The position numbers and the translations under genes are program-made. The notes below the pieces were generated by a model that saw only the letters and a program-made list of their open reading frames with translations, did no database searches and was not told where the DNA came from. A DNA stretch of 64,000 bases from Streptomonospora salina. GTDB taxonomy: Bacteria > Actinomycetota > Actinomycetes > Streptosporangiales > Streptosporangiaceae. Position 1 is the stretch's first letter. Each line of letters begins with the position of its first letter. Location: NCBI RefSeq assembly GCF_014204715.1, contig NZ_JACHLY010000001.1, positions 3,990,501 through 4,054,500 on the forward strand, in the 5' to 3' direction. Below are positions 27,505-57,220 of this stretch, in pieces.

Positions 27505-28055
27505 CCCCCGAGGATGCCCTTGTTAGGTGGGATTGTCAGTCCATATGAGGAAAAAGCGTCGTGCCTTCGGAGTGACGTGAGGTGACGGGGGTGACTCAGA
27601 CGGGAGAGGTGCTTGGCGTCGGTGTCCTGGTTCGGCGCCGAGTGCGCTGCCGAGCCGAGCGACGATGTGGGACAGCCCGAGGCCGCACTCCGCGGACCGG
27701 TAGAACATCTCTTCACGGCCACGCCTGCGCCGATGAGAACGCCGGCCGTCCTCGGGCGGATGTCTCCTTACCTGCCGGCGACTCGCGTCGGCCGCGCAAC
27801 CTCACCGCCGTGGGCGCAAGCCTTCCGGACACCGTCGACTTCATCGAGGGCGCGGACACGGAGGGGAGGATCCTGGTCGGCCGAGGCGAACTCCTTACCG
27901 CTCTGCGTCGCGTGACCGACCTCGAAGGAGTCCGAGCCGAACTCCTCGATGAGGTACTCGACGGGCCGGTGGTCACCCCCCTGCGACGCACGACAGGGTC
28001 GATGTCCTCGTTGGACGGAGACTGACTGCTCCGCTGTCGCGACCGTTGTGGAGGC
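27505..28055. other. Region without a clear gene, 551 bp; possible kinase debris
   Basis: No intact gene is seen. On the minus strand near 27650-27708 the words FYRSAE and GLGLSHIVARL resemble the G2 end of a histidine kinase ATPase domain, but no N or G1 box can be joined to them. It may be a decayed kinase fragment. Confidence 0.3.
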
Positions 28056-28077
28056 GTGTCGCGGTTGTGTCACAGAA
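28056..28077 (+). promoter_or_regulatory. Candidate OmpR-type direct-repeat box upstream of the regulator
   Basis: GTGTCGCGGTT and GTGTCACAGAA stand in direct repeat with an 11-bp period, the usual geometry of OmpR/PhoB-family sites. Nearly the same box occurs at 54047-54068, and a related one at 57138-57159. It lies 60-80 bp before the start of the response regulator gene, consistent with autoregulation. Confidence 0.6.
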
Positions 28078-28136
28078 CCGGCTGACGCCGCTCGATTGCC
28101 ACGGCAGGGGCAGAGGTGTCTTCTAGCATCGGCGGC

Positions 28137-28811
28137 GTGGCTACTGTTCTGCTGATCGAAGACGACGCGCTCGTCAGGCGCGGCCTGCAGCTCGCTCTGA
28201 AACGCCACGGGCACCGTGTCGAGGCCGTCGAAGACGGCGAGGACGGCCTGGCGCGGTTCGGCACCGGTGATGTGGACATGCTCGTGCTGGATCTGATGCT
28301 TCCCGGCATCGACGGTTTCGAGGTCTGCCGCCGGATCCGAGAGTCGTCGCAGGTTCCGATCATCGTGCTGACCGCCCGCGGCGACGATTTCGACGTGATC
28401 ACCGGGCTGGAGGCGGGCGCGGACGATTACGTCATCAAGCCGGTGCAGCCCACCGTGCTGGATGCGCGCATCCGTGCCATCCTGCGCCGGTCGGTGAGCG
28501 ATCCCGACGGCGTGCGCACGCACCGAGGTCTGCGCATCGACACCGAGTCTCTGGCAGTCACCGTCGACGGCAGGGAAGTCGGTCTCACGCCCACGGAGTT
28601 GCGCCTGCTGCTGACCCTGTCGAAAGCACCTGGGCGGGTGTTCAGCCGCGAACAGCTTCTGGAAGAGGTGTGGGATCAGGGGTATCTCGGGGATTCCCGG
28701 CTGGTGGACAACGGTGTGATGCGGCTGCGGTCGAAGATCGAAACCAGCCCGGCACGACCGGAATACGTACAGACCGTGCGCGGATTCGGGTACAGGTTCG
28801 GCCCGGTGTGA
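28137..28811 (+). CDS. Response regulator, OmpR/PhoB family
   Basis: The protein has 224 residues. The receiver has LIEDDALVRRGL, phospho-acceptor Asp52 (LVLDLMLPG), VLTARGDD and Lys in YVIKPV. A winged-helix effector domain at about 127-222 ends in EYVQTVRGFGYRFGPV. GTG 28137 is preferred: TAGCAT (28124-28129) lies at the -10 position of a leaderless transcript. GTG 28116 with a weak GGGG site is the alternative. It overlaps the kinase gene by 4 bp (GTGA). A copy of its first ~37 codons lies at 54128. Confidence 0.93.
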   Translation: MATVLLIEDDALVRRGLQLALKRHGHRVEAVEDGEDGLARFGTGDVDMLVLDLMLPGIDGFEVCRRIRESSQVPIIVLTARGDDFDVITGLEAGADDYVIKPVQPTVLDARIRAILRRSVSDPDGVRTHRGLRIDTESLAVTVDGREVGLTPTELRLLLTLSKAPGRVFSREQLLEEVWDQGYLGDSRLVDNGVMRLRSKIETSPARPEYVQTVRGFGYRFGPV

Positions 28812-30325
28812 GAACCTCCAGGATCCGACGGTTCCTCCGCAGCATGTCGGGGCTGCGGGGGCGGCTGATCGTCACGGTCGTCGTCGCCGCCGCACTCGGT
28901 GCGACCGCAGCCGCCTGGGCCGGGGTGCAGCAGTCCACGGCGTCGCTGATCGAGGCGAACCGGCGCTACCACACCGAAGACCTCGCCGAGAGGATCACTC
29001 AGGCGGCCCCGTCTGCGCAGTACCCACCCGGCCGCGGATCCCTCGACCGGCTGCGGATCGCAGCGGGCGAGAATTCGCTCGTGCGCTACGACGACGCGAT
29101 GTCCGGCGACGGCATCTTCGCCTCGGGTGCGCAGGCGGTTCCGGCCGAACTGCGTCAGGCGCTGAACGCCCAAGCCGCTAGCGAGGACCCTGGCGTGCTG
29201 ACCCAGCGGGTAGATATCGACGGGAGACCGTGGCTGCTGATCGGTGCCCCGGTGATGATCACCGCCCCCGACGGGACCCTGACTCCCTCGGGGATCGAGG
29301 TATATGCGGCGCGCGACCTCACGGACGTAGAGGAACAGGTCGACGGCCTCGCCCGCGGCGCGGCGACCACGACGCTGGTGGCGCTGCCGTTGGCGGTGCT
29401 GCTCGCGCTGCTGGCTTCGCAGGGGGTGCTGCGCCCGGTGGCACGGTTGCGGGACACGGCCCAGCGTCTCGCGCAGGGAGACCTGGACGCGCGTACCGAC
29501 CCCGCCGGGGTCGACGAGTTGGCTCGGCTGACCCGCTCCGTCAACGACATGGCCGCATCGCTGCAGGACTCGATGGAGTCGATGGCCAGGATGGAAGAAG
29601 GGTCCCGCCGTTTCGCCGCCGACGTCTCCCACGAGCTGCGCACGCCGCTGACGACCCTGACCGCTACCGTCGAAGTCTTGAACGACATACTGACGCACAC
29701 GAACAGCATCCGTTCCTCGGATGAGCAGGAGGCTCGGGAATCCGCACAGCTGGCCGTCATCGAGACACGCCGCCTGGTGGAGCTCGTCGAGGACATTCTG
29801 GACATCGCTCGGATCGACGCCGGCACAGCGCAGCTGCGTCGGGAGGAGACCGATCTCTTCGAGGTGGTCAGCACCTGCGTGCACACCCGCGGCTGGTCCG
29901 ACGACGTCACCATCGCCCGGCCCGCCTCCGCCCCGGGCGACACCACGGTGGTGGCTGACCGGCGCCGCATCGACGTGATCATGGCGAACCTCATCGGCAA
30001 CGCCCTCACACACGGCGGCGCCCCGGTGCGAGTGGTTATCACGGCGACGACCGAAGAGGCGAGTGTGCAGGTGATCGATTCCGGTCCCGGGATACCCGAG
30101 GATGTTCTGCCGCATGTCTTCTCCCGGTTCTACAAGGCCGACGCCGTACGGACCCGCACCCCCGGCAGCGGCCTCGGCCTGGCGATCGCGTGGGAGAACG
30201 CCCGAATCCACGGCGGGACGATCAGCGCCGCGAACCACCCCGACGGCGGCGCGGTCCTGACCCTCCGGCTCCCACAGGCACCGGAACAAGCCACCCGCGA
30301 GGACGGTCGGGAGCAGATCCCATGA
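28808..30325 (+). CDS. Sensor histidine kinase, HisKA type
   Basis: The protein has 505 residues. A first helix (about 19-40), an extracellular sensor of ~145 residues and a second helix (about 186-206) are followed by HAMP (207-262), the HisKA box FAADVSHELRTPL with His276, and HATPase_c with the N box (MANLIGNALTHGG), DSGPGIPEDVLPHVFSRFYKAD and GSGLGLAIAWENARIHGG. GTG 28808 overlaps the regulator stop, making a cognate pair. Its end overlaps the lipoprotein ATG, so three genes are coupled. Confidence 0.95.
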   Translation: MRTSRIRRFLRSMSGLRGRLIVTVVVAAALGATAAAWAGVQQSTASLIEANRRYHTEDLAERITQAAPSAQYPPGRGSLDRLRIAAGENSLVRYDDAMSGDGIFASGAQAVPAELRQALNAQAASEDPGVLTQRVDIDGRPWLLIGAPVMITAPDGTLTPSGIEVYAARDLTDVEEQVDGLARGAATTTLVALPLAVLLALLASQGVLRPVARLRDTAQRLAQGDLDARTDPAGVDELARLTRSVNDMAASLQDSMESMARMEEGSRRFAADVSHELRTPLTTLTATVEVLNDILTHTNSIRSSDEQEARESAQLAVIETRRLVELVEDILDIARIDAGTAQLRREETDLFEVVSTCVHTRGWSDDVTIARPASAPGDTTVVADRRRIDVIMANLIGNALTHGGAPVRVVITATTEEASVQVIDSGPGIPEDVLPHVFSRFYKADAVRTRTPGSGLGLAIAWENARIHGGTISAANHPDGGAVLTLRLPQAPEQATREDGREQIP

Positions 30326-30804
30326 AGCGCCGCATGATCGCAGCGGCCCTGGTCGGCGGTGCCTCCGCCTTGTTGGCGGGCTGCGGGGTGCAGCCGTCGG
30401 GCGTCGAAGACGGCCCCTCGGCACCCACGGGTGTCGCGCCCGGAACGACCCTGTACTTCCTCGACCACGACGGCAACCTGACCGCGCAGCAGCGGAAGAC
30501 CGGACGGCTGGGGACCGCGTCCGAGGCCGTGTCGCTGCTGCTGACCGGCCCCGGCGACTCCGACGTACACACCGACATCGACGACCCCGCATCCGTGACC
30601 CGGACCGAGGTCACCGTCAGCGGTGAGCGCATGAGCGTGCGGGTGCCGATCGCCTCCACCGAACTGACAGCCGACGGTGTCGATCAGATCGTCTGTACCG
30701 CCCTCGCCAGCCACATCCAGGCCGGAGGATCAACGGAAACCCGCGTGGGCATCCGGTTCACCGATCGCGCCCAAGACTCGCGAACCTGCCCCGTGCTGGA
30801 CTGA
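30322..30804 (+). CDS. GerMN-like lipoprotein
   Basis: The protein has 160 residues. The lipobox is LLAGC with Cys21. The mature part, TTLYFLDHDGNL, then SEAVSLLLTGP and ELTADGVDQIVCTALAS, resembles the GerMN/LpqB N-terminal sporulation-type module that occurs with two-component systems such as MtrAB. ATG 30322 overlaps the kinase stop (ATGA). It is probably an accessory of the kinase at the cell surface (inference). Confidence 0.83.
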   Translation: MKRRMIAAALVGGASALLAGCGVQPSGVEDGPSAPTGVAPGTTLYFLDHDGNLTAQQRKTGRLGTASEAVSLLLTGPGDSDVHTDIDDPASVTRTEVTVSGERMSVRVPIASTELTADGVDQIVCTALASHIQAGGSTETRVGIRFTDRAQDSRTCPVLD

Positions 30805-30877
30805 CCCGCCCCTTGGCTTGTGGCTGAGACAGGCCCCGTTCCCGCCCCCATCCGTCGCCGCCCAGACGTCCGTGGGG

Positions 30878-31083
30878 CTACCCTGCGCCGCTGTCGATCG
30901 ACGGTGCCGCGGGCGTCGGCAGCGCGAACCACATCACGAGGAGTGCGGCCGAGGCGACGAAAAACGTGACCAGTCCGGTGCGTCCTCGCACCCACCGCAC
31001 CCGGAACCGGATCACCGCCCGATCGACCGCGCCGATGACGAACGGCCACACCGGATAGAACTGCTCGTCGACCGCGATGCTCC
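30878..31083 (-). pseudogene. Acyltransferase-3 (OafA-type) remnant with internal deletion
   Basis: About 67 codons remain. SIAVDEQFYPVWPFVIGAVDRAV is the middle of the intact acyltransferase at 55787-57094, and it runs directly into RFRVRWVRGRTGL and the family C-terminus. The missing ~200 codons are bounded in the intact gene by two copies of CGGTTCCGG, and the remnant has one copy at the join, so a deletion between short repeats explains it. The 5' half is gone as well. Confidence 0.8.
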
Positions 31084-31173
31084 GTCTCGCAAGGCCACAG
31101 GTAGGCACCGATTGCGACGGGATCGCGACATGACGACGACGGCACGGACGAAGGCCGGCGAAACACTGAGGGC

Positions 31174-31941
31174 ATGCGTCAGGAAGAGCCCGCACGACCC
31201 CGTGCCACCGATCGTCGTCGAAGGATCGCCGGTGCCACTCTCGCCGCTTCGCTCGCCGTCACGATCACCGGAATCGCGGCGATCGGCCTCGCCCCAGACC
31301 GGTTCGACGCTGTACGCGTCGAATTGGACGACTCCACGTCCGGATCGTCATCCGACGGCGGTCCTTCCGGAGCGGGCGTCTACCGGGTCGACACCGACGA
31401 TCCCGTCGTATTCGTCACCATCGACGACGGGCACCATCCCAGCAGCGAAGCTCTCGACATCATCCGAGAGCACGAGATGCCCGTCTCTGTGTTCCTCAAC
31501 GAAGATCCGGTCGTCTACAACCATTCCTACTTCGCCGAGTACGTTGAGATGGGCAACTATGTCCACTCACACACGCTCTCTCATCCCGATCTCACTCGGC
31601 TCGACACCGCTCGGCAGGAGAACGAGATCTGCGGCATGGTCGACATTCTCGACGACCGCTACAGCGAGGCCGGACACGTCGGCTCGCTGCTGCGACCCCC
31701 CTACGGCGCCTCGAACGAGGCGACCGCCGCGGCGGCTCAACGCTGCGGCCTGGACACCATCGTCCACTGGACCGTCACCGCAGAAGACGGCCGACTCTCC
31801 TTCGCAGCCGGAGACGGGCTCCAACCGGGCGACATCATCTTGACCCACTTCACCGAAGACCTCCCCGACAACCTCGACCGGATCCGTGAACTCGCCGACG
31901 ACTCAGGCCTAACAATCGCACGTCTGGAAGACCGCCTTTGA
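31174..31941 (+). CDS. Polysaccharide deacetylase (NodB homology domain)
   Basis: The protein has 255 residues. An N-terminal anchor or signal helix (about 18-40) precedes the NodB domain. Motif 1 is TIDDG (82-86, catalytic and metal Asp), motif 2 is HSHTLSH (131-137, metal His) and motif 3 is RPPYG near 173; WTV and ILTHF follow. All catalytic residues appear present, so it should remove acetyl groups from peptidoglycan or another surface glycan outside the membrane. The upstream ~65 bp are shared with the region before the acyltransferase of locus B. Confidence 0.93.
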   Translation: MRQEEPARPRATDRRRRIAGATLAASLAVTITGIAAIGLAPDRFDAVRVELDDSTSGSSSDGGPSGAGVYRVDTDDPVVFVTIDDGHHPSSEALDIIREHEMPVSVFLNEDPVVYNHSYFAEYVEMGNYVHSHTLSHPDLTRLDTARQENEICGMVDILDDRYSEAGHVGSLLRPPYGASNEATAAAAQRCGLDTIVHWTVTAEDGRLSFAAGDGLQPGDIILTHFTEDLPDNLDRIRELADDSGLTIARLEDRL

Positions 31942-33124: not shown

Positions 33125-33250
33125 GTGAAGGTGGGCTCCTCCGAACTCGGCCACTCCGCGACCTCCTCCACTCAGGACACATGCCAGAGCGTTGTCCCCG
33201 GCGTCGCGCAGGCGGTGGAGGAGGCCACGGCCGCGCCCTCCTCCACCGGT
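33125..33250 (+). pseudogene. Tyrosine recombinase C-terminal remnant
   Basis: VGSSELGHSATSSTQDTCQSVVPGVAQAVEEATA matches the end of actinobacterial integrases (LGHSS..T.DTYTSV.PEVA.AAAEA). The catalytic Tyr is Cys here (TGC). Nothing of the upstream recombinase survives. A second remnant with the same QDT.QSV words is at 40402. Confidence 0.65.
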
Positions 33251-44258: not shown

Positions 44259-44347
44259 ACCGCCGGCCGGTCCGGCCGCCGGCGCCGCTCGCGCCGTCCG
44301 AGCAGTCCGCCACCCACCCCGCACCTTCCGACAAGGGGATTCTCACC

Positions 44348-46037: not shown

Positions 46038-46320
46038 ATGAACCAGGACGCGGACGAGCCGCTCTCCGAGGCCGAGACACTCGGTGCGCCGAAGGATCTC
46101 GAAGGCCCGATCCTCGCGGAGGACCTTCTGCTTCTCCTGTTCCAGCCGAACGCCGGTCTTCGGTCCGGCACCGGGACCACCGCGGGTGAGAACACGCTCT
46201 TGTCCACCCTCGCGGGAGCGGTGTCGGCCGGCCCTCGGGCTCGGCGAAGAGGTGCGGACCGCGGCGGAGGTGCCGCGAGCAGCTCGACCACGAAGCTCCT
46301 GGCCGGGCGCATGCGGGCGC
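46038..46320 (+). pseudogene. GPP34-family gene remnant, frameshifted
   Basis: ATG 46038 opens MNQDADEPLSEAETLGAPKD, followed by LAEDLLLLLFQPNAG and LSTLAGAV, the N-terminus of GPP34 (GOLPH3-like) proteins that bind phosphoinositides in eukaryotes and are common in actinobacteria. Register is lost near 46220; the next frame gives LGLGEEVRTAAEVPRAA, the expected continuation. The remaining two thirds of the family length is absent. Confidence 0.65.
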
Positions 46321-46368
46321 TTCAGGTGGGGCACGCCACCGCCCCACCGGCTGCTGCCTGAACAGCCC

Positions 46369-46983: not shown

Positions 46984-47002
46984 ATCGACCTCCTGTTGCC
47001 CA

Positions 47003-47032
47003 CTAGTATACCGTACTAGTACGGTGTACTAG
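47003..47032. promoter_or_regulatory. 30-bp palindromic TetR operator
   Basis: The stretch reads CTAGTATACCGTA-CTAG-TACGGTGTACTAG. The inner 16 bp, ACCGTACTAGTACGGT, are a perfect palindrome and the whole is near perfect. It is directly upstream of both divergent genes, so a bound TetR would block both promoters. Confidence 0.88.
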
Positions 47033-47075
47033 CTGGTGGCGAGTCCCCAGCGCACGCTTGAAGCCAGGGGGAGCA

Positions 47076-47726: not shown

Positions 47727-47728
47727 TC

Positions 47729-48613
47729 ATGCCTTCCAATGACAATGGAACTAACACGCGGCGATTCGGGGCGCACCTCTCCCTGAGCCGGTGGAAGCCG
47801 ATTATCGTGATCGCCATCCCCCCGATCGCGATGATCGCATTGCAGATCGCCTTGTTCCAGGTGGCCGGACTGATTGACGGAAGCGGCGGTCAGTCCGGGA
47901 AAGTTACTCCACTGCAACTGCTTGCAGTGAATCTCAGCATGAGCCTCACCGGTTTGCTCACCGTGCCGCTCATTGCGCGGTTGGCGAACGTTCCCTGGCG
48001 TGCGGTGCTGAGCTATCCGCGGAAATTCGACCGCCGTCGCCTCACTGTGTACTTGCTCTGGGCGCTTTTGTTCACCGTTCTCGGAAACGCGGGATTGGCG
48101 ACCTTTGCTCTCGATCACACCCCTTGGGTGGGATTCGGTGTAACCGGAACCACGATAGCTCTGCTCGTGGTCATTTTGTTGACCACTCCGTTCACGGCGG
48201 CAGCAGAGGAGCTCATGTTCCGGGGGGCGATGATGCCGGCCGTGGCCTCGTGGGTGAGACCCGAGCGACTTGCGCTGGGGGCGGGCGCTGTGGTTTCCAG
48301 CTTCGTGTTCGCTGCTTCCCATTTCGCATCGGATCCGTGGCTGTTCGGCTACCACGTCTTCTTGGGGTTGGCCACGGCTGTGATGGCCATCCGCAGCCAA
48401 GGGCTGGAGGCGCCGATCGCGTTCCACGTGGCCAACAACGCCTTCACCGCGGTCCTGAACGTCTTCCTCGCAGACGGGGGCGCCTTCTCCGTTGAACGCG
48501 GCTCCGGATCCGGTGGGCCGCATCTGTTCATCCCCGTCGTCTTCGTGCTGGCGACGCTGGTTGTCGTCTGGGTGCGCGAGGGGCGGGCGAGGACGGCGAG
48601 CGTGAACGGATGA
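47729..48613 (+). CDS. CPBP-family intramembrane metalloprotease
   Basis: The protein has 294 residues and about eight helices. The motifs are AAEELMFRGAM (EExxxR), FVFAASHFASDPW and IAFHVANNAF. The start follows the preceding gene's stop by two bases, so translation is coupled. Control by the TetR palindrome at 47003 is likely. A decayed relative is at 49080-49190. Confidence 0.92.
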   Translation: MPSNDNGTNTRRFGAHLSLSRWKPIIVIAIPPIAMIALQIALFQVAGLIDGSGGQSGKVTPLQLLAVNLSMSLTGLLTVPLIARLANVPWRAVLSYPRKFDRRRLTVYLLWALLFTVLGNAGLATFALDHTPWVGFGVTGTTIALLVVILLTTPFTAAAEELMFRGAMMPAVASWVRPERLALGAGAVVSSFVFAASHFASDPWLFGYHVFLGLATAVMAIRSQGLEAPIAFHVANNAFTAVLNVFLADGGAFSVERGSGSGGPHLFIPVVFVLATLVVVWVREGRARTASVNG

Positions 48614-49070
48614 GATCGATTCTCCTCGACCGTTCTGGAGCGCGAAGTGGCCGCCGTATCGGCGGTCGTCTCCGTCTGAGTACAGGTCGTCGCGAGCAGG
48701 ACGGAGACGGTGACGGGGACGCCGCGCCATGCCGCGCGGCGCCGGTGGCGGTCGGCCCGTTTCGTTGTGGACCAGCGCTGGTGCCGGAGAAGGAGCGGAG
48801 CCGACCAGGGCCGTCCGCGCGCTCGGCCTGCACACACGCGCAGCGTCAAGGTGATGAACCGGCGCGGCCTGCCGGATCGGTTCCTCGCCTGCGGCCGGCG
48901 GGACCCGCTCGGCGGAGGCTTCGCCGGTGCCAGAAAGCCGCCTCCGGAGCGGCTCGGCACCGCACATCCCTCCATGGTCGCGATCCCTCAGCCCACCACC
49001 GGCCGCCTGCTGATCAGAGCTGATTCAAAGTCGGTGATCGTCTTGGTTGTATGAGGGCTGGACGTTGCGC
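48614..49070. other. Gene-free stretch with an IS481-end remnant
   Basis: Most of the stretch has no recognisable gene. At 49020-49066, GATTCAAAGTCGGTGATCGTCT and then GTATGAGGGCTGGACG repeat sequence at the left end of the IS481 remnant (40607-40690), with ~35 bp missing between the two parts. It is probably a trace of an IS481-type element that cut the CPBP relic beside it. Confidence 0.5.
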
Positions 49071-49191
49071 GGAAGGTGCTCTCCTCGTCTGCGGCCTGGA
49101 GCGGTGTGGTCAGGAGCACCACCACCAGCAGTGCCGCTGTCGTCCCCGTGATCGCGAAGGCGGAGCGGTCAAGGGGGTGAGAGGAGGTCAT
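49071..49191 (-). pseudogene. CPBP-protease gene remnant
   Basis: The minus strand reads AFAITGTTAALLVVVLLTTPLQAADEESTFRA. It matches GFGVTGTTIALLVVILLTTPFTAAAEELMFRG of the intact CPBP protein at 47729, including the active-site region, with the EE altered to DEE. The rest is lost, apparently at the IS481-end sequence on its left. This is the third CPBP locus within 4 kb. Confidence 0.7.
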
Positions 49192-49238
49192 GTCGGTCCT
49201 TCCGGTCGGGGAGGCGGGGCGCGCAAAAGACATTCGGC

Positions 49239-51134
49239 TCAGGCCAGGTGCTGGGCGAGATGCGTGGCGATCGCGCGCTGCAGGCGGATCTCGTTCTCAG
49301 GGTTGCCGAAGCCGTGGCCCTCGTCCTGGACTAGCAGGTATTCGACAGGGACCCCCCGATCGCGCAGCGAGGTGACGATCCGGTCCGACTCCTCGCGCCG
49401 CACCCGGGCGTCGTTCGCGCCGTGGGCGATCAGCAGCGGAGTCGTGATCGCCTCGACCCTGCTCATCGGGGAGCGGGCGAGCATGTCCGCCTCCTGCGCG
49501 GGGTCGTCGGGGTCGCCGACGTAGGCGAGCCAGCCGCTCGCGATGTACGGACGGCTCACGGGCGGGAAGCTGCGCAGGAAGCTCGACAGGTCCGCGATGC
49601 CGACGAGATCCACGGCTGCGGCGAAGCGCTCCGGGGTGAAGGCCGCACCGACGAGAGCGGCGTACCCGCCGTAGGAGCCGCCGATGATCCCCACGCGGTC
49701 CGGGTCGGCGATGCCGCGGTCGACGGCCCAGTCGACCGCGTCCAGGAGGTCCGTGTGCATGGCGCCGGCGAACTCGCCCCGCGCTGCGAGGGTGTGGCGC
49801 CTGCCGTAGCCGGAGGATCCGCGGAAGTTCACCTGCAGCACGGCGTGGCCGCGGTCGGCCAGGAACTGGACCTGTGCGCTGAAGCCCCAACTGTCGTGCG
49901 CCCACGGTCCGCCGTGGACCACGAGCGCCAGCGGCAGCTTCCTGGCGGGAATGCCGACGGGAAGGGTGAGGTAGCCATGCAGCGGCAGCCCGTCCCGGGC
50001 GAGGAGCCGGATCGGCTCCATGGGCGCGAGATGTGCGGTGTCCAGGTGCTGGTAGGGCTGGAACAGGCGGCGGCTGCGGCCGGTGGCGTGGTTGTACAGC
50101 CAGGCCTCCGGTTCGCGGTCGTGGAGGAAGGTGGCGACCCAGCGCGTCCCGGAGGTGTCCGAGCTCAGGGAGTCGAGCACGCCGTCCGAGAGCGCGGCCA
50201 GCGCCGCGTGCACCTCGGCGAAGCGCGGGTCGACCACCTCGATGTGGGGACGGGGCCCCGTGAACCGGGCGGCGAGGATCTCCCCGGTCGCACGATCGGT
50301 GAACAGGGTGGGTGGCAGCACACCGGGGGCCAGCACGCTCATGATGTCCAGGCTCCGCCCCGGGACGGCGGCCAGCACGCTCACCTCCGCGGTCTCCCGG
50401 TCGATGCGCACCAGCTGTAGGTCATCGCCCTCGAGATAGAGGCTCAGGATGAGGCCCGTGCCATCGGGGGTGGAGCGCTGCACCTCGACCCCCACGGGCT
50501 GCTCGGCCCCGCCGGCGCGCAGCAGCAGGCGCTGCTGCCCGGAATCCGGGTCGATCGTGCAGAACTCGGTGCTCCCGTCTTCGGTGACCCGGGAGACGAA
50601 TGCCGGTTCGCCATCCCGGTCCAGCAGCAGGTCCACCCCGGCCTCGGTCTGCTCGTGCAGAAGAGTGATCTCGCCGGAGCCCACGTCGATCAGGAACATG
50701 TCCAGGCGCGCGGGCCGCTGGTTCATGGTGGCCAGCACTGTCCCGGGCCGAGAGGGCATCGGCTCCGCGGAGAACACCCGCGACCCCGGCTCCAGAGGGG
50801 TCAGGTCCTGCGGTGCGGCCTCGGGATGCTCGAGGTCCACCCGGAACAGGTGCCAATCCTCGTTCCCGTCGGTGTCCTGGAGGTAGAGCAGCCAGCGGGG
50901 ATCGTCGCACCAGAAGAAGGTGAGGATCCCTCGTCGGGAGTCGTGGGTGACGCAGCGGGCCTCCTCGTGCTCCTGATCGATCCCCCGCACCCAGACGTTC
51001 TTCCGCCCACCTGCCGGCGCCAAATATGCGAGCCAGGCTCCGTCGGGGGAGATCACGGGGTGGGAGAAGGCGGGGTCGCGGAACAGGTCCTCGGCCTCGA
51101 ATCGGCGGGGGACTGACGTGGCACGCACGGTCAT
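49239..51134 (-). CDS. S9-family prolyl oligopeptidase-like peptidase
   Basis: The protein has 631 residues. An N-terminal beta-propeller (about 1-370; ISPDGAWLAYLAP, WLLYLQDTDGNEDWHLFRVDL) is followed by an alpha/beta hydrolase peptidase domain with Ser487 (GGSYGGY), Asp575 (HGANDARV) and His607 (DEGHGF). The propeller limits access to short peptides or acyl-peptides. There is no signal peptide, so it is cytoplasmic. GAAGGAG precedes the ATG. A MerR gene is divergent from it. Confidence 0.95.
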   Translation of the reverse strand: MTVRATSVPRRFEAEDLFRDPAFSHPVISPDGAWLAYLAPAGGRKNVWVRGIDQEHEEARCVTHDSRRGILTFFWCDDPRWLLYLQDTDGNEDWHLFRVDLEHPEAAPQDLTPLEPGSRVFSAEPMPSRPGTVLATMNQRPARLDMFLIDVGSGEITLLHEQTEAGVDLLLDRDGEPAFVSRVTEDGSTEFCTIDPDSGQQRLLLRAGGAEQPVGVEVQRSTPDGTGLILSLYLEGDDLQLVRIDRETAEVSVLAAVPGRSLDIMSVLAPGVLPPTLFTDRATGEILAARFTGPRPHIEVVDPRFAEVHAALAALSDGVLDSLSSDTSGTRWVATFLHDREPEAWLYNHATGRSRRLFQPYQHLDTAHLAPMEPIRLLARDGLPLHGYLTLPVGIPARKLPLALVVHGGPWAHDSWGFSAQVQFLADRGHAVLQVNFRGSSGYGRRHTLAARGEFAGAMHTDLLDAVDWAVDRGIADPDRVGIIGGSYGGYAALVGAAFTPERFAAAVDLVGIADLSSFLRSFPPVSRPYIASGWLAYVGDPDDPAQEADMLARSPMSRVEAITTPLLIAHGANDARVRREESDRIVTSLRDRGVPVEYLLVQDEGHGFGNPENEIRLQRAIATHLAQHLA

Positions 51135-51177
51135 GGGGCTCCTTCGGCGAGGTGCGATCGGTGCCCTCAGCCAAAAC

Positions 51178-51199
51178 GATGCCCTGGGGGCAGAGTCAA
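51178..51199 (-). promoter_or_regulatory. MerR-type operator between peptidase and MerR genes
   Basis: On the minus strand TTGACT (51199-51194) is followed by TGCCCCCAGGGCA (51192-51180), a palindrome with TGCCC/GGGCA arms lying where the spacer of the peptidase promoter would be. This is the MerR-family arrangement; the divergent MerR gene is the natural candidate regulator. Confidence 0.55.
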
Positions 51200-51268
51200 A
51201 GACGGCCTTCCCTTCCCCGGTCCGAGCGGGGAGGATGGCCTCATGCCCGACCTGCTGAGCGACCGCTG

Positions 51269-52009
51269 ATGGCCTGGAGCACGCGCCGGCTCGCTGAGCT
51301 CGCGGGCACGACTGTGAAGACCGTCCGGCACTATCACGCGATCGGACTCCTCGAGGAGCCCGCCCGGGCCGGGAACGGCTACAAGCAGTACGGCACGTCC
51401 CATCTCGTGCGCCTGCTGCAGATCGCGCGCCTGCGGGAGCTGGGGATGCCGCTGTCGGGCGTCGCAGAGCTCGAGGAATCCGGTGAGGCCTTCACGCAGA
51501 CGCTCCGCACCCTCGATTCCCAGCTCTCCGCCTCCATCGCCCACCAGCAGGAGCTGCGCGCCGAGATCGCCGACCTCCTGCGCCATCGCCCCGATCCCGA
51601 CGTCCCCGCCGGGTTCGCCGACGTCGCGGACGATCTCACGCCTGCCGACCGCGCGATGGTCATGATCAGCGCCCGGGTCTACGACGAGCAGGGCCTGCAG
51701 GACATGCGGGCCATCGTCGCGCACCACCGGGAGGCCGACGATGCCTTTGACGAGCTGGCGTCGGACGCCACCGCCGACGAGATCCGGGCCGTCGCCGCGC
51801 GTCTGGCTCCCGCGCTCCGCACGATCCACGAGCAGTACCCGGGTATGCGGACCCCACCGCTGGGCGTCGGCAGTCGCACCTCGTTGCAGGACCTCGTCCA
51901 GGCGGTCACCGAGCTCTACAACCCCGCCCAGGTCGAGGTGCTGCGCCAGGCGTACCGGCTCGCGCTCGACGACCCCACGGACTCCGCCCGGGACGCCGAA
52001 GGACAGTAG
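51269..52009 (+). CDS. MerR-family transcriptional regulator with long effector domain
   Basis: The protein has 246 residues. The MerR winged helix (about 4-70) has STRRLAELAGTTVKTVRHYHAIGLL and wing GNGYKQYG. A coiled coil (about 78-110) follows and then a ~130-residue helical domain of the kind that binds organic ligands. It is divergent from the S9 peptidase and probably controls it in response to a peptide or drug-like ligand (inference). Confidence 0.9.
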   Translation: MAWSTRRLAELAGTTVKTVRHYHAIGLLEEPARAGNGYKQYGTSHLVRLLQIARLRELGMPLSGVAELEESGEAFTQTLRTLDSQLSASIAHQQELRAEIADLLRHRPDPDVPAGFADVADDLTPADRAMVMISARVYDEQGLQDMRAIVAHHREADDAFDELASDATADEIRAVAARLAPALRTIHEQYPGMRTPPLGVGSRTSLQDLVQAVTELYNPAQVEVLRQAYRLALDDPTDSARDAEGQ

Positions 52010-53176
52010 ATGTCCAGCACCGTCTGGCGAGCATCCACGAGACGGATCGCGCCGACATCACCGTGACCGGACACGACGAGAGCCGTGCAGGATCGCAAGG
52101 GTCTCCATATCGGAAGGACAGTCTCATGCCTCGTGGCCCGAAGAAGGGCTGGTGGCAGACGTTGTCTCCGGACGTTCCGGATCGTGTGGGCAGCTCGGAT
52201 CCCTCGTTGCTCGACATGAGGGGAGGGCACCGAGCGAGAGTCCGAGGAAGCCGTCCGCACGGCGGGCGCGACGAGCAGCTTCCCCGTACCGGATCGGCAG
52301 AGCCAGCGACCACCTCGCAGATGGCTGTCGGGTGCCGAACGCGGCGGAGATCCGCTTTAACGTGTAGCGGCCTCGTGTCGGTGTGAGGTCTCAGGACGTC
52401 CTTTGCCGTTCGTATTCAGGACACGGTTGACCACCATGCGGCATGACCGCCGGTGAATCCAGGACCGGCGTCGTGGGACGAGTGTGGATCAGCCGACACT
52501 GGCGGAACTACCGCTACAGGGCGGTATGCGAGGTTCCGGGCGGATCACCGATCGGTGAGGTCGCAGCGCGCTACGGGACGTCCGCCAGTCACGGCACACC
52601 TGGAAGAACCGGTTCCGACAGGACGGCATGGAAGGTCTCGCCGACCGTTCCAGGCGCCCCCGCACCAGCCCGAGCCGCGTCTCCGCCGGGGAGGACTCGC
52701 TAGTCCACCGCTCGGCCCTCGAGCACTATCTGACGACCTACGGCTCGCCCGAGCCGCCGCCGTCGTCGTGGCTCATGGTCGAAACACTGACCATCGGAAC
52801 GTTGGCCAACGCGTACTGCACCCTGAGCAGTCGGGCCGACCGGACCGCGGTCGCCAAGAGTATCGGGCTGACCGCCCCGGTGCTCGTGTCACTGCAGTCG
52901 GTTCTCGATTCTGTGTCTCCGCGCAGTGCCTGGGCGAGGCGACTACCACGACCTCCTCGCCAGCCGCCCGCCGATGAACCTCCGCGGCATGGGCGTCCCC
53001 GATGGCTGGGCGGACGACGGCTTCTGGAACAAGCACCTCGCCTGAGCCCCGCCCAGCGCTCGAGGAGCAGGACACGGTCGAGCAGGGATGCGCTCTCGTC
53101 CTCGCTGCCGGCGTCGCGGGTGTCGGTGCCGGCTACAACGACATCCCGCTGGCCAAGTCCCGGAACGTCGGGAGTC
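52010..53176. other. Debris region without an intact gene, 1167 bp
   Basis: Several broken pieces occur. GGAAGGA before ATG 52126 opens MPRGPKKGWWQTLSPDVPDRV, which soon loses protein character. An IS481-like N-terminus lies at 52490-52700. A minor frame at about 52930-53044 reads DYHDLLASRPPMNLRGMGVPDGW, then ADDGFWNKHLA and a stop; it looks like the end of a real protein that was not identified. Confidence 0.5.
52490..52700 (+). pseudogene. IS481/IS3-like transposase N-terminal remnant
   Basis: YRYRAVCEVPGGSPIGEVAARYGTS is the first helix-turn-helix of IS481-type transposases. After a frame loss near 52600 the neighbouring frame continues with RQDGMEGLADRSRRPRTSPSRVS, the expected following sequence. 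The catalytic part is missing. Confidence 0.7.
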
Positions 53177-54004
53177 TCAGCAGCCGTGGAAGAGTTCGCT
53201 GTCGGCCCAACCTGTGTTCGCCCAGCTGTCGGGGTCCGCCGGGGCGAGGCCGTCGTAGCGGTCGGCGAGCTGTTCGAGGATCCAGCTGGTGAATCGGGCC
53301 GCCCCCTGAGGGCAGGTGTGGATCCCGTCGTCGCTGCGGTCGATCACGCCGTCGCGCTCCCTCGCGTACTCGTCGCCCCACACCTCGGAGGCATCGAGGT
53401 AGTCGACGTCGGCGAGGTCGTCTGCGACCTGTCGAGCGGCATCGTCGGCGGTGGCGAGCTCCTCCATGTGAGGCTCGTAGAACTCGTCGGGCTCGATGGG
53501 AGGCATCGACACGAGGAGAAGGTCGGCGTCGAGATCTGCGGTGGTCTCGGCGAGGCGTTCGTAGGTGGCGCGCTGTTCGTCGGAGGTGCCCCAGTCGTAG
53601 GTGGTGATCTGGTAGAGCACGACGCCGCCTGCGGCCTGTTCGAGTGCTTCGGGGATAGCCTTCCATTGTTCTTCGGCGTTCGGTCCGACGAGGTTTCCGC
53701 CTCCAGTGGAGGTGGCGTCGATGAATTTCGCGCCGCTTTCTTCCAGCCCTTGCCGGAGGGCGACTGCTTGGCCGGCGGCGACGGAGTCACCGAGGAAGAG
53801 TACAGGCGACAGGTTGGCATCGGCGCCCTGCGTAGATTGCGTCGATCCCTCGCTAGCGGCGTCGTCGGTTTGACCGGTTCCGCAGGCGGCCAGTGGCAGG
53901 GCTGCAATAGCGACCGAGGCGATTCCTGTCGCGCGGCGGACCCGACCGCGGAGTCTCTGGAGAACGGTGGCCGGTGTGGCGGTATTCGTCGTGTCTGTTC
54001 GCAT
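53177..54004 (-). CDS. SGNH/GDSL-hydrolase lipoprotein
   Basis: The protein has 275 residues. The lipobox is PLAAC with Cys41. The mature protein has the block I motif LFLGDSVAAG (Ser74), Gly/Asn-like residues in the GGGNLVG region and the block V pair Asp226/His229 (SDDGIHTCPQG). SGNH proteins next to OafA-type acyltransferases often transfer or remove acetyl groups on surface glycans, which fits this locus. A direct-repeat RR box lies 43-64 bp before its start. Confidence 0.9.
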   Translation of the reverse strand: MRTDTTNTATPATVLQRLRGRVRRATGIASVAIAALPLAACGTGQTDDAASEGSTQSTQGADANLSPVLFLGDSVAAGQAVALRQGLEESGAKFIDATSTGGGNLVGPNAEEQWKAIPEALEQAAGGVVLYQITTYDWGTSDEQRATYERLAETTADLDADLLLVSMPPIEPDEFYEPHMEELATADDAARQVADDLADVDYLDASEVWGDEYARERDGVIDRSDDGIHTCPQGAARFTSWILEQLADRYDGLAPADPDSWANTGWADSELFHGC

Positions 54005-54046
54005 GGTGCGACTCTTACAACCTGCTGTCGCGACCGTTGTGGAGGC

Positions 54047-54068
54047 GTGTCGCGGTTGTGTCGCAGAA
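54047..54068. promoter_or_regulatory. OmpR-type direct-repeat box, locus B
   Basis: GTGTCGCGGTT and GTGTCGCAGAA repeat with an 11-bp period. It differs by one base from the box at 28056-28077 before the intact regulator. Here it lies upstream of the SGNH gene (leftwards) and of the response-regulator fragment (rightwards). Confidence 0.6.
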
Positions 54069-54183
54069 CCGGCTGACGCCGCTCGATTGCCACGGCAGGG
54101 GCAGAGGTGTCTTCTAGCATCGGCGGCGTGGCTACTGTTCTGCTGATCGAAGACGACGCGCTCGTCAGGCGGGGCCTGCAGCT

Positions 54184-55675
54184 CAACACCGTTGTTTTAG
54201 GGTGTTTTCGCTGGTGGGGTGAGGCGCCAGATGTGGACGCGATGTCGGGTTCTACCCGAGGCGGGTGTGGCGCGCTTGCGGGTGGGGAACCGGAAGGAGC
54301 GCCGGGTGACCTCACGGGGTGCGGACCGCCGGCGCCGCCGGGGCAGCAGGTCGTCCCAGAGCTCGTCGAAGGCCCACACGTCCAGTACGGCCAGGTCCTC
54401 AGGGGGAAAAACGCCCACCGGTCCGGTTGACCGAGCGGCGGGCGGTGTTGAGCGCGGTGGTGAAGCTGATGCGGTCGGGATCGAGCTGTGCGTACCCGGC
54501 GGCGCGGGTGATCAGGTCCGAGACCGCCTGATAGACCAGCAGCAGCGCCCAGGCCTCCTGACGGATGAGGTCGGGACTCTGGGAGCGGAACCGCACCGTC
54601 GTTCCGCCGCGCAGTTCGGTCTTGACCGCGTCGTAGAGGATCTCCGATTCCCAGCGGGCCGCGTACAGCCCCGGGAAGTCGGCGATGGGGTGGAGCACCG
54701 GGTCGATCAGGCTGGTGACCAGGGTGATCGTCTCCCCGGCCGTGGTGTGGCCGCCGTGTGCGGTGACGGTGTCGGTGTAGACGGTGTACTCGACCACACG
54801 CACCAGCGGACCGCCCTTGGACAGGTGCGCGGTGTAGGAGCCGTCGGCCAGGACCTCGACGGGGGCCAGGGCGAACTGGGCGCCGGCGCGCATGATGACC
54901 TGGGCGCCGGTGGCGGTGATCGTGCAGTACAGGTCGCTGCCGCAAAACCCCGAGTCGAAGACCGTGAGCATGTCGGGCGCGAACGAGGCCGCCATGCGCT
55001 CGCACAGGGCTTTCTCGCTGGTGGTGTAGGCGTCGAAGGACGCGTCGATGAGGCAGCGGGTGCCGATCTCGCAGTGGGCGACCAGACGCAGTTGAGGGAA
55101 GGCCCCCTCAGAGGGGCCGCCGAACGCGGCCCGGTTCGCGGTGGTGTCGGGGGTGTCCAGGCAGGTGCCGTCCACCGCAGTCAGGCGGTAGCCGCGCCAC
55201 CATGCTCCCGGGGTGTCGCTCTCGGCCAGGGGCCCGGCGGTGCGGGCGAAGAGCAGCGTGAGGGGTTCGGTGCCCAGCCGCTGCCGGGCCCGGCTCACGC
55301 TGGAGGCCTCGGGCGCGCCCGAGGCCGGCACGGCCAACTCCCGGGCCCCGCCGCTGAACGCGCAGCCGTCAGCCAGCCTGCGCCAGACCTCTTTGTAGGA
55401 GAGGTTGCGCCACAGCCACAGCGCCAGGACCAAGTACAGGGTCAGCCGTGCGGGCAGCTCGCGCCGCCGTTGCTGGAGGGCGCCGCCCCGGGTGGCCACC
55501 TCCTCGACCAGGTGCGGGTCGAAGGTCTGGGTCAGCACCCCGAAAGAGGCGCGGTCAGCCGCGTTCGTCACGCCATCGAGTATCCCGCGGGTAGAGGCGG
55601 CCGCGAACCCTCGGTGCCAGGCTCGCACCACCCCGAGGCCCTTACCAGCGAAGATGCCCTAAAACAACGGTGTTG
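54184..55675 (-). mobile_element. IS4-family insertion sequence (1492 bp), intact
   Basis: The ends are inverted repeats starting CAACACCGTTGTTTTAGGG on both sides. The element is flanked by an 11-bp direct repeat, GGCCTGCAGCT (54173-54183 and 55676-55686), the size of target duplication made by the IS4 family. The single transposase gene is undamaged. It inserted into the already truncated response-regulator copy. Confidence 0.92.
54399..55631 (-). CDS. IS4-family transposase (DDE)
   Basis: The protein has 410 residues. The catalytic core has Asp in TAVDGTCLD, Asp in TVFDSGFCGSDLY and the IS4 signature Y-(2)-R-(3)-E-(6)-K in YAARWESEILYDAVK, a perfect fit. An N-terminal helical domain (about 30-115) contains ARLTLYLVLALWLWRNLSYKEV. 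The frame is complete, so transposition competence is likely. Confidence 0.95.
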   Translation of the reverse strand: MVRAWHRGFAAASTRGILDGVTNAADRASFGVLTQTFDPHLVEEVATRGGALQQRRRELPARLTLYLVLALWLWRNLSYKEVWRRLADGCAFSGGARELAVPASGAPEASSVSRARQRLGTEPLTLLFARTAGPLAESDTPGAWWRGYRLTAVDGTCLDTPDTTANRAAFGGPSEGAFPQLRLVAHCEIGTRCLIDASFDAYTTSEKALCERMAASFAPDMLTVFDSGFCGSDLYCTITATGAQVIMRAGAQFALAPVEVLADGSYTAHLSKGGPLVRVVEYTVYTDTVTAHGGHTTAGETITLVTSLIDPVLHPIADFPGLYAARWESEILYDAVKTELRGGTTVRFRSQSPDLIRQEAWALLLVYQAVSDLITRAAGYAQLDPDRISFTTALNTARRSVNRTGGRFSP

Positions 55676-55786
55676 GGCCTGCAGCTCGCTCTGAAACGCC
55701 ACGGGCACCGTGTCGAGGCCGCCGAAGACGGCTGCTCCCGTGAGACAGTCCCTGTTCTCATCCGTGGGCGCCCAGACATCCGCGGG

Positions 55787-57094
55787 TCAGAGTGCGCCGG
55801 TGTCGATCGGCGGTTCTGAGGGCGTCGGCAGCGCGAACCACATGACGAGGAGCGCGGCGGAGGCGACGAGGAACATGATCAGTCCGGCGCGTCCTCGCGC
55901 CCACCGCATCCGGAACCGGATCGGATCCTCCACCAAATGCTTCGACGCGACGGCGAAGGCGACCGATATCCCGATGACGATCGCGGAGTGCAGCCAGTGC
56001 GGCAACTCCGGATGCTCCGGCACAGAGAAGAGTACGATCACCGGCCAATGCCACAGATAAAGGCTGTACGAGATCTCGCCGAGCCGGGTAAGCGGTTTCG
56101 CCTGCAGCATCCGCATGGGCAACAGAAAGCGATCCGACCCCGCCGTGTTCTGCGTCTGCACGGTGGTGACGGCGGCGCACAAGCCGATGAGAATCGCGCA
56201 GGAGATCGCGTGCGCGAAAAGGCCGCCGGTGAACAATCCCAGCGTGGAGGTCCCCTCCGTGAGCACCCAGAACGTGAGGATCCCCACCGTGAGGATCCCG
56301 ATCGCCCACGTGGTGGCACCGCGACACGACCGCACGATGTGTTGGAACGCGCGTCGGGCCGGGGCCGTCGCCGCTGCGGCGCCCAAAAGCAGAGAGAACG
56401 CTCTCGTGTCGGTGCCCGTGTACACACGCGTGGGGTCGGCAGGATCGAGCAGGGCGACCATCAGGACGAGCGAGCCGGCTGAGACGGCGATCGCGAACGT
56501 CAGCACAGCGACATCGACATGCCCGACACGTCGCCGGAACCGTTCCACCGCCCAAGCGACCGCGCCGATGACGAACGGCCACACCACATAGAACTGCTCC
56601 TCGACCGCGATACTCCACAGGTGCTCGAAGACCCGCGACTGACCGAGGGCGTCCCAGTAGCTCGCGTCCTGCGCCAGCAGATGCCAATTGACCAGATTCA
56701 ACTGCACCCACAGGCCGTCCGCCAGTGTTGTGGAGACCATGCCGCGATCGGTGACCGGGTAGCCGAACCGTTGCAGTGTCCAGACCGCCACGGTCACCAC
56801 GACCAGCACCAGCGCCAGTGCGGGAAACAGGCGCCGGAGTCGACGCCCCCAGAATGACACGAGCGAGATCCCGCCGGCCGCCCCCGCTTCGCTAAGAAGC
56901 AGCCCCGTGATGAGGAACCCCGATAACACGAAGAACAGGTCGACGCCGAGGAAACCGCCGGGCATGTTGCCGGTATGGAACAACAGCACCCCCGACACAG
57001 CGAGGCCGCGCAACCCGTCCAGGGCCGGAATGTGCGAAGGAGTGTGGACGGCTCCGGGAGGCCGGACGGAGGAAGCCGGGTGTGAAGAGCGCAT
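55787..57094 (-). CDS. Acyltransferase-3 (OafA/YrhL-type) membrane protein
   Basis: The protein has 435 residues and about ten helices. The family residues are PALDGLRGLAVSGVLLFHTG (RGLA..V..FH), GGFLGVDLFFVLSGFLITGLL, FWGRRLRRLFPAL (the Arg pair) and HLWSIAVEEQFYVVWP. It should transfer O-acetyl or similar groups to surface glycans across the membrane. No SGNH domain is fused, so the separate SGNH lipoprotein of this locus could be its partner. A decayed copy is at 30878. Confidence 0.95.
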   Translation of the reverse strand: MRSSHPASSVRPPGAVHTPSHIPALDGLRGLAVSGVLLFHTGNMPGGFLGVDLFFVLSGFLITGLLLSEAGAAGGISLVSFWGRRLRRLFPALALVLVVVTVAVWTLQRFGYPVTDRGMVSTTLADGLWVQLNLVNWHLLAQDASYWDALGQSRVFEHLWSIAVEEQFYVVWPFVIGAVAWAVERFRRRVGHVDVAVLTFAIAVSAGSLVLMVALLDPADPTRVYTGTDTRAFSLLLGAAAATAPARRAFQHIVRSCRGATTWAIGILTVGILTFWVLTEGTSTLGLFTGGLFAHAISCAILIGLCAAVTTVQTQNTAGSDRFLLPMRMLQAKPLTRLGEISYSLYLWHWPVIVLFSVPEHPELPHWLHSAIVIGISVAFAVASKHLVEDPIRFRMRWARGRAGLIMFLVASAALLVMWFALPTPSEPPIDTGAL

Positions 57095-57137
57095 ACCGCC
57101 GACAGTGCCGACCCGGGGTCACCGGTGCCTCGCCGTC

Positions 57138-57159
57138 ATGTCGCAGCCGTGTCGCAGGG
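57138..57159. promoter_or_regulatory. OmpR-type direct-repeat box upstream of the acyltransferase
   Basis: ATGTCGCAGCC and GTGTCGCAGGG repeat with the same 11-bp period as the boxes at 28056 and 54047. It is 44-65 bp before the acyltransferase ATG. Confidence 0.55.
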
Positions 57160-57220
57160 CCACAGGTAGGTACCGATTGCGACGGGATCGCGACATGACG
57201 ACGACGGCGCGGACGAATCT
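57152..57220. repeat. Promoter segment shared with locus A (31084-31151)
   Basis: About 65 bp (from TCGCAGGGCCACAGGTAGG through ACCGATTGCGACGGGATCGC to GACGACGACGGC) recur at 31087-31151 with only about four differences. Here the segment precedes the acyltransferase; in locus A it precedes the deacetylase and the acyltransferase remnant. Confidence 0.75.

What the first reader, a model, noticed from the sequence alone, without database searches (positions are those of the whole stretch)
28026..57220. Two paralogous surface-glycan loci with reciprocal decay
Locus A (28.0-31.9 kb) has an intact regulator, kinase, lipoprotein and deacetylase but a gutted acyltransferase. Locus B (53.2-57.2 kb) has an intact acyltransferase and SGNH hydrolase but only ~37 codons of the same regulator. 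The regulator fragment is ~98-99% identical at the DNA level while the acyltransferase-side sequence is only ~80% alike by eye, so the parts have different ages: an old duplication plus recent copying or conversion of the regulator end.
Basis: partly seen in the sequence, partly recalled or inferred. Interest (0 to 1): 0.72.

Follow-up and report, generated by a model that had tools for sequence, protein, structure and literature searches.

The report
Envelope-modification gene set split in two
A compact set of bacterial genes that probably senses the cell surface and chemically decorates it is normally kept side by side, but in this genome two old copies have each lost the half that the other kept, so that the sensor now sits at one place and the decorating enzymes at another.

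Summary
Loci A (28.03-31.94 kb) and B (53.18-57.22 kb) are colinear. The regulator ends differ at 3 of 206 sites, the acyltransferase remnants at 33 of 247 (Fisher 8e-7), so the parts have different ages. (1) B's regulator is not just truncated: a recent IS4-family element (five near-identical genomic copies) cuts it, and a ~2.6-kb deletion removes the rest. (2) The ancestor is a conserved module, SGNH<- / ->response regulator-kinase-GerMN lipoprotein-> / <-AT3 acyltransferase: this layout in 32 of 33 relative loci and in 23 of 23 other family genomes holding the kinase (24 of 341 scanned). Only the window's genome has it split. (3) The losses are complementary: A keeps regulator, kinase, lipoprotein and deacetylase; B keeps SGNH and acyltransferase. 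A direct repeat TGTCGC-N5-TGTCGC lies ~44 bp before SGNH and AT3 start codons in most loci; its strict form occurs twice in this 5.6-Mb genome, both in B. Most likely A's regulator now controls B's enzymes in trans. Duplication or acquisition, and conversion or not, stay open.

The parts
28033..28136 (+). Locus A: promoter region of the regulator; 103 of 104 bases identical to B 54024-54127; operator TGTCGCGGTTGTGTCAC at 28057-28073 (one mismatch, in the second half-site)
28137..28811 (+). Locus A: OmpR/PhoB-class response regulator, intact (224 aa)
   Evidence: PF00072 and PF00486 (on the ORF from 28116); 1 of 87 otherwise invariant residues changed; dN/dS 0.19 against G005
28808..30325 (+). 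Locus A: sensor histidine kinase, intact (505 aa), start overlaps the regulator stop
   Evidence: HAMP, HisKA, HATPase_c (on the ORF from 28670); dN/dS 0.28; only match in the genome at E<=1e-80
30322..30804 (+). Locus A: small GerMN-type lipoprotein (160 aa), third gene of the regulator-kinase run
   Evidence: Pfam Germane 17.7 bits, below its cut-off of 23; model nearest to B. subtilis GerM GerMN domains, E 3e-3; found in 33 of 33 relative loci
30825..31013 (-). Locus A: remnant of the 3' end of the AT3 acyltransferase gene with its 3' flank
   Evidence: 82.5% to B 55741-55922
31001..31083 (-). Locus A: remnant of an internal stretch of the AT3 gene; the 624-bp loss before it lies between sites that in B both read CCGGAACCG
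   Evidence: 89.2% to B 56534-56616; junctions
31082..31152 (.). Locus A: remnant of the AT3-deacetylase intergenic region; AT3 operator reduced to one altered half-site, deacetylase operator kept at 31114-31130 (- strand, one mismatch)
31174..31941 (+). Locus A: polysaccharide deacetylase (255 aa), start codon 43 bp from operator 31114-31130
   Evidence: PF01522; beside AT3 in 3 of 33 relative loci, two of which others are cut within 1 kb of AT3
53177..54004 (-). Locus B: SGNH hydrolase/transferase, probable lipoprotein (275 aa), intact; operator 43 bp upstream of start
   Evidence: DUF459 just above cut-off, GDSL and SGNH hits below theirs; model nearest to Cj0610c/PatB; dN/dS 0.25
54048..54064 (+). 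Locus B: operator TGTCGCGGTTGTGTCGC, exact
54128..54183 (+). Locus B: start of the dead response regulator up to the IS insertion, including target-duplication copy 54173-54183
54184..55675 (-). IS4-family insertion element (1492 bp), transposase 54399-55631 (-), 19-bp perfect terminal inverted repeats, 11-bp target duplication GGCCTGCAGCT
   Evidence: PF13006, PF01609; NF033592 above cut-off; ends; five copies in the genome
55676..55732 (+). Locus B: rest of the dead regulator fragment (to codon 34), then junction of a ~2.6-kb deletion (rest of regulator, kinase, lipoprotein)
55787..57094 (-). Locus B: AT3 acyltransferase (435 aa), intact
   Evidence: PF01757 101 bits; 0 of 86 otherwise invariant residues changed; dN/dS 0.36
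57139..57155 (+). Locus B: operator TGTCGCAGCCGTGTCGC, exact, 44 bp upstream of the AT3 start
   Evidence: gap from coordinates
57179..57195 (-). Locus B: counterpart of A's deacetylase operator (one mismatch) with no deacetylase behind it; homology to A ends at 57217

Best explanation
The genome once held two copies of one module: a sensor unit (response regulator, kinase, GerMN lipoprotein) flanked by two enzyme genes (an SGNH acyl-transferase/esterase lipoprotein and an AT3 membrane acyltransferase), with a deacetylase beside AT3. The copies had diverged by about 13% in the AT3 pieces, then decayed in a complementary way. A lost SGNH and most of AT3. B lost kinase, lipoprotein and most of the regulator, and its regulator stub was hit by an IS4-family element. 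One full working set is left, split over two loci 26 kb apart. The A-encoded kinase and regulator most likely switch on B's SGNH and AT3 genes, and A's own deacetylase, through TGTCGC-N5-TGTCGC sites ~44 bp upstream of each start codon. AT3 would then pass an acyl (probably acetyl) group across the membrane to the SGNH lipoprotein, which places it on a wall or surface glycan. Shown here: anatomy, complementarity, conservation of the module, the operator-like repeat and its spacing. Inferred: that the repeat is the regulator's site, regulation in trans, its sign, acyl-transfer chemistry, substrate and signal. A recent exchange or re-duplication between the copies renewed the 206-bp regulator end.
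For: Five colinear A/B blocks. Congener G005 has one undamaged cassette: A aligns to it over 28033-31013 (88%), B over 53171-54184 (84%), 55676-55731 and 55757-57192 (86%). Same layout in 32 of 33 relative loci, the other rearranged, and in 23 of 23 other family genomes with the kinase (24 of 341 scanned, one kinase match each at E<=1e-100). Retained genes open, dN/dS 0.19-0.37, 0 or 1 otherwise invariant residue changed per gene. Repeat with at most one mismatch upstream of the regulator in 32 of 33 loci and of AT3 in 22 of 33; 59 hits in 18.8 kb of promoter against 2 in 523.6 kb elsewhere in the loci. Start codon 41-47 bp from the site: SGNH 28 of 33, AT3 26 of 33, deacetylase 2 of 3, nearly always 43-45. 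TGTCGCRNNNNTGTCGCA occurs exactly twice in the genome, both in B. SGNH model nearest to Cj0610c and PatB structures.
Against: No expression, binding or activity data. A's regulator operator carries a mismatch in an otherwise nearly invariant half-site position. dN/dS is pairwise and cannot separate selection before the split from selection since. Decay is continuing (near-identical IS copies), so B's enzymes could be on their way out. In one search, 6 of 33 relatives gave no AT3-side and 3 of 33 no SGNH-side site-start pair under the limits used, and start codons were picked from all in-frame candidates. One AT3 homologue (L072, 52%) lies without the module although 8 kb downstream was read. 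A sequence profile of the SGNH protein ranks acyl-CoA thioesterase I first, narrowly ahead of Cj0610c and PatB, so transferase chemistry is not settled.
Confidence: 0.62

Rival explanations
1. No gene conversion: one recent copy was broken at the regulator, with 206 bp duplicated at the break. Its left half (SGNH plus regulator start) became the left part of B, its right half (regulator to AT3) became A. B's AT3 comes from a second, older copy.
For: The near-identical tract ends at A's left homology edge (28033) and at B's deletion edge (28238). Divergence from G005 is compatible for the A part and B's SGNH (84-91%).
Against: The AT3-upstream block (4 of 69 differences) is also closer than the AT3 pieces (33 of 247), though not significantly (P 0.09), and this reading does not predict that. 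It needs a staggered break and a second source for AT3.
Confidence: 0.3
2. The second copy was acquired from a related species rather than made by duplication in this lineage; reciprocal loss then followed. (Compatible with the split module itself.)
For: The cassette is patchy: kinase in 2 of 6 genus members and 24 of 341 family genomes, the window's own included. G005 holds it at another place, its right flank matching own C1 2.069-2.071 Mb. Pieces flanking the window loci lie on different contigs or far apart in G002.
Against: Site patterns make A and B nearer to each other than to G005, which local duplication explains as well.
Confidence: 0.45
3. Both loci are simply dying; B's enzymes have not yet met their first lethal mutation and nothing is controlled in trans.
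For: Recent IS insertion, broken gene fragments next to B, kinase absent from 4 of 6 genus members.
Against: All five genes are kept, each once, with invariant residues, and both B operators are exact with canonical spacing, while the AT3 remnant and its operator in A are wrecked.
Confidence: 0.22
4. Misassembly or chance similarity.
For: None found.
Against: Both loci lie on one 5.07-Mb contig of a three-contig, 99.98% complete genome; E-value down to 5.7e-78.
Confidence: 0.02

Closest known systems
PatA/PatB peptidoglycan O-acetylation (membrane acyltransferase plus separate SGNH protein)
   Same: Separate membrane and SGNH parts; the SGNH model's best matches include PatB structures 8tlb, 7tlv, 7tjb.
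   Different: The membrane part is AT3 (PF01757), not MBOAT (that PatA is MBOAT: start of the abstract of PMC12148441, listing). Acceptor untested.
OatA-type AT3-SGNH fusion proteins
   Same: AT3 and SGNH genes coupled; review PMC9558356 (passages) says the SGNH domain is essential in AT3-SGNH fusions and asks whether AT3-only proteins need a partner.
   Different: Here AT3 and SGNH are separate genes flanking a two-component system.
CseB/CseC and MtrA/MtrB-LpqB actinobacterial envelope two-component systems
   Same: Best NCBIfam hits of regulator (CseB) and kinase (MtrB); regulator-kinase-lipoprotein order recalled as that of mtrAB-lpqB.
   Different: Scores far below curated cut-offs (265 of 350; 271 of 450); dedicated AT3/SGNH neighbours; 160-aa lipoprotein with a single GerMN-like domain.
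IS4-family insertion elements
   Same: NF033592 166.7 bits over a cut-off of 115, terminal inverted repeats, 11-bp target duplication.
   Different: Nothing notable; ordinary.

Membership tests
Five-gene SGNH / RR-HK-GerMN lipoprotein / AT3 module (defined here) | All five genes present and open in the genome | tested here: met
Five-gene SGNH / RR-HK-GerMN lipoprotein / AT3 module (defined here) | Side by side as SGNH- RR+ HK+ LIPO+ AT3- | tested here: not met
   Split over 28.0-30.8 and 53.2-57.1 kb; 32 of 33 and 23 of 23 other loci have this layout (L046 with a 1.7-kb gap)
Five-gene SGNH / RR-HK-GerMN lipoprotein / AT3 module (defined here) | TGTCGC-N5-TGTCGC before both enzyme genes at ~44 bp | tested here: met
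CseB/CseC | NCBIfam CseB score at or above cut-off 350 | tested here: not met
   265.2 bits
MtrA/MtrB | NCBIfam MtrB score at or above cut-off 450 | tested here: not met
   270.9 bits
OatA | AT3 and SGNH fused in one chain | tested here: not met
   separate ORFs 55787-57094 and 53177-54004
PatA/PatB | PatB-like SGNH fold | tested here: met
   8gr2, 8tlb, 7tlv, 7tjb, E 1e-8 to 1e-7, TM-score (query) 0.52-0.54; other SGNH hydrolases follow at E 6e-7 and above
PatA/PatB | MBOAT membrane partner | tested here: not met
   partner is PF01757, no MBOAT hit
SucT | NCBIfam SucT score at or above cut-off 1275 | tested here: not met
   131.5 bits
Peptidoglycan O-acetylation | Acetyl transfer to peptidoglycan | not testable with these tools
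   needs biochemistry
IS4 family | IS4 transposase, inverted repeats, target duplication | tested here: met

The most novel reading that the evidence does not exclude
A bacterial case of duplication-degeneration-complementation acting on a whole sensor-effector cassette: complementary loss has made two damaged copies mutually necessary, turned a cis-linked two-component/effector cassette into a trans-acting regulon, and a recent exchange kept the shared promoter and regulator start nearly identical between them. The underlying module, a two-component system with an AT3 acyltransferase, a stand-alone PatB-like SGNH partner and one shared operator geometry, was itself not described in any paper that the searches listed.
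Probability: 0.4. Interest if true: 0.65.

Novelty: new variant of a known kind. Interest (0 to 1): 0.5.

Why it matters
A module kept together in 23 of 23 other family genomes found with its kinase has been taken apart here with no working gene lost or doubled: a clean natural experiment on how linked sensor-effector cassettes become dispersed regulons. The module also bears on a question put in an AT3 review (PMC9558356, passages), whether AT3-only acyltransferases need a separate SGNH partner: here such a pair is co-inherited and shares an operator-like repeat at a fixed distance, so it can be tested.

Tried and rejected
Rejected: that B's regulator fragment is a plain truncation (an IS4-family element interrupts it); that the deacetylase is a chance neighbour of A (it lies beside AT3 in 3 of 33 relative loci, and B keeps the counterpart of its operator); that the module is CseBC or MtrAB (below cut-offs); that the M. 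smegmatis MSMEG_0243-0247 locus is the same module (passages of PMC7516205: haem-binding protein, transmembrane protein and peptidase around the two-component system, no acyltransferase/SGNH pair named).

Led nowhere: finding the ancestral site. G005's right flank maps to own C1 2.069-2.071 Mb, where no cassette was matched; G002 holds pieces of the flanks on different contigs or far apart. A three-way MAFFT of the full loci misaligned around the deletions and was replaced by segment-wise alignments. Direction of the presumed conversion cannot be told: of three differences, two are A-derived and one B-derived against G005. The codon-position test on the A remnant (changes at positions 1, 2, 3: 5, 8, 4 in A; 5, 1, 5 in B) hints at relaxed constraint but is small. 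In one search one relative of the deacetylase has 31 violations, presumably L071, the distant, non-adjacent homologue. One search counted stop codons in some kinase matches; on checking, those in the best tblastn hits lie within the last 10 residues (L134, L135, L150; L043 and L065 in the other set), i.e. natural ends.

Not in print, as far as searched: no listed paper appeared to describe this module or complementary loss of a bacterial operon (one search had no hit). Only titles and abstract openings were seen, except passages of PMC7516205 and PMC9558356. Most subscription journals are absent from the library. One search (LpqB/MtrAB/GerMN) gave listings only.
Full report
Observation. The two loci are homologous and colinear. 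Five strong blocks match on one strand. The first two (28033-28193 with 54024-54184, 28182-28238 with 55676-55732) are one 206-base stretch at A that B holds in two pieces, with 3 differences in 206. The acyltransferase blocks are far more diverged (33 of 247), Fisher P = 8e-7 between the two classes. The block upstream of the acyltransferase (4 of 69) is intermediate.

What interrupts B. Between the two regulator pieces lies 54184-55675, a 1492-bp element with an IS4-family transposase on the minus strand (PF13006, PF01609; NF033592 166.7 bits over a cut-off of 115). Its ends are 19-bp perfect inverted repeats, flanked by GGCCTGCAGCT on both sides. Five copies at ~100% identity, this one included, lie in the genome, so the insertion is recent. 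Beyond codon 34 B jumps to the sequence that in A follows the lipoprotein gene: ~2.6 kb is missing.

What is broken in A. Against B, the acyltransferase gene has lost 624 bp between two sites that read CCGGAACCG in B (a multiple of three) and its 5' part together with half of its operator. The SGNH gene is absent to the left; homology to B and to G005 starts at the same base, 28033.

Undamaged relatives. The congener G005 holds one intact cassette: A aligns to it over 28033-31013 and two shorter pieces, B over 53171-54184, 55676-55731 and 55757-57192. Of the 80, 31 have an AT3 at 49% identity or more, and 29 of the 31 hold all five genes. The two others are L077, where AT3 runs into the contig end, and L072 (Streptomyces sp. 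A108), where 8 kb downstream of AT3 shows none of them. None of the other 49, with AT3 at 43% or less, shows all five, though five (L073-L076, L078) have an SGNH homologue next to AT3. From the kinase side, 24 of 341 family genomes have a match at E<=1e-100, one each; leaving out the window's own, 23 of 23 show the five genes in the standard layout (these loci are ~4 kb, so SGNH and AT3 are seen in part). The sets overlap: G005, G033, G013 and G015 are in both. The window's genome is the one exception. Only 2 of 6 genus members, itself included, have the kinase.

Complementarity. A keeps regulator, kinase, lipoprotein and deacetylase; B keeps SGNH and AT3. Retained genes have dN/dS 0.19 (regulator), 0.28 (kinase), 0.37 (lipoprotein), 0.25 (SGNH), 0.36 (AT3) against G005 (Nei-Gojobori). 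At positions invariant in the other loci the window's proteins change 1 of 87, 1 of 86, 0 of 22, 1 of 42 and 0 of 86 residues (regulator, kinase, lipoprotein, SGNH, AT3), within the range of single relatives.

Operator. A direct repeat TGTCGC-N5-TGTCGC with an 11-base period, the kind of site expected for an OmpR/PhoB-class regulator (recalled), lies between SGNH and regulator and upstream of AT3. With up to two mismatches it is found in 34 of 35 regulator-upstream and 32 of 35 AT3-upstream regions (33 loci plus A and B), against 1.0 and 1.4 expected per set from mononucleotide shuffles. With at most one mismatch: 32 of 33 and 22 of 33 loci, with 59 hits in 18.8 kb of promoter and 2 in 523.6 kb of the rest. 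A start codon lies 41-47 bp from the site, nearly always 43-45, for SGNH in 28 of 33 loci, AT3 in 26 of 33 and deacetylase in 2 of 3 (up to one mismatch, two for AT3; start codons were chosen from all in-frame candidates, which favours finding one). In the window the gaps are 43 (SGNH), 44 (AT3) and 43 (deacetylase), from coordinates. The gap to the regulator start falls mostly near 40-41, 50-53 and 61-63, steps of about one helical turn (several loci also offer nearer in-frame starts). The stricter form TGTCGCRNNNNTGTCGCA occurs twice in the 5.6-Mb genome and not at all in the backward control; both places are in B. The 64-kb window has five sites with at most one mismatch: two in A, three in B. 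B's third is the counterpart of the deacetylase operator of A, with no deacetylase behind it.

Function. The SGNH model (mean pLDDT 83; 199 of 275 residues at 90 or more, N-terminal third low) is nearest to Cj0610c and PatB structures (17-19% identity, TM-score by query 0.52-0.54). By sequence profile alone, acyl-CoA thioesterase I ranks first (E 3.4e-4), with Cj0610c and PatB next (4.6e-4, 5.6e-4). The lipoprotein model is nearest to GerMN domains of GerM (weak, E 3e-3). AT3 scores far below the SucT cut-off. The most likely work is regulated O-acylation of a wall or surface glycan by a split AT3 + SGNH pair, with a deacetylase in some species. Acyl group, acceptor and signal are not known.

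History. In each segment, sites where A and B agree against G005 are the most frequent variable class (19, 6, 25, 5, 14 for the five segments). In the two AT3 segments they number 30, against 17 A-only and 15 B-only (P 0.04 against equal classes), suggesting an A/B split younger than the split from G005. The 17 and 15 private changes mean that A and B were separate for long before the 206-base tract was last shared. Gene conversion between copies, or a break of one copy with a 206-base overlap, both fit. The surroundings are rearranged: window 46.2-52.7 kb matches G002:C34 at 89-99% in three pieces, while 57217-57797 is a fragment matching G002:C100 at 87%, whose longer counterpart in the own genome lies at 4.2446-4.2478 Mb.

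Limits. No expression or binding data. dN/dS is pairwise. Literature searches reach open papers only.

Noticed in passing
window 57217-57797: A 580-bp gene fragment abuts the right edge of cassette B; a longer counterpart lies at own C1 4.2446-4.2478 Mb, so this too looks like a broken duplicate.
   Followed up: partly
window 17900-18181: A 135-bp direct repeat (97.8%) with a spacing of 147 bp.
   Followed up: no
window 24283-25149: A second transposase, IS4/5 type (PF13340, PF01609), 3 kb left of locus A.
   Followed up: no
window 44001-45154 and 46236-52311: These stretches are 96-99% alike in G002 while others (27.1-27.6, 33.2-36.1, 57.2-57.8 kb) are 78-91% alike, suggesting mixed ancestry or recent exchange along the window.
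   Followed up: partly
L073-L076, L078: More distant AT3 genes (41-43%) with an SGNH homologue (27-32%) next to them but no two-component system found: AT3 plus separate SGNH pairs may be widespread.
   Followed up: no
L068 (Actinokineospora fastidiosa) 5338-9857: The same five genes all on one strand, RR HK LIPO AT3 SGNH; repeat kept before AT3, none found before the regulator.
   Followed up: no
window 33213-33248 and 47003-47032: Imperfect palindromes of 36 and 30 bp, possibly terminators.
   Followed up: no
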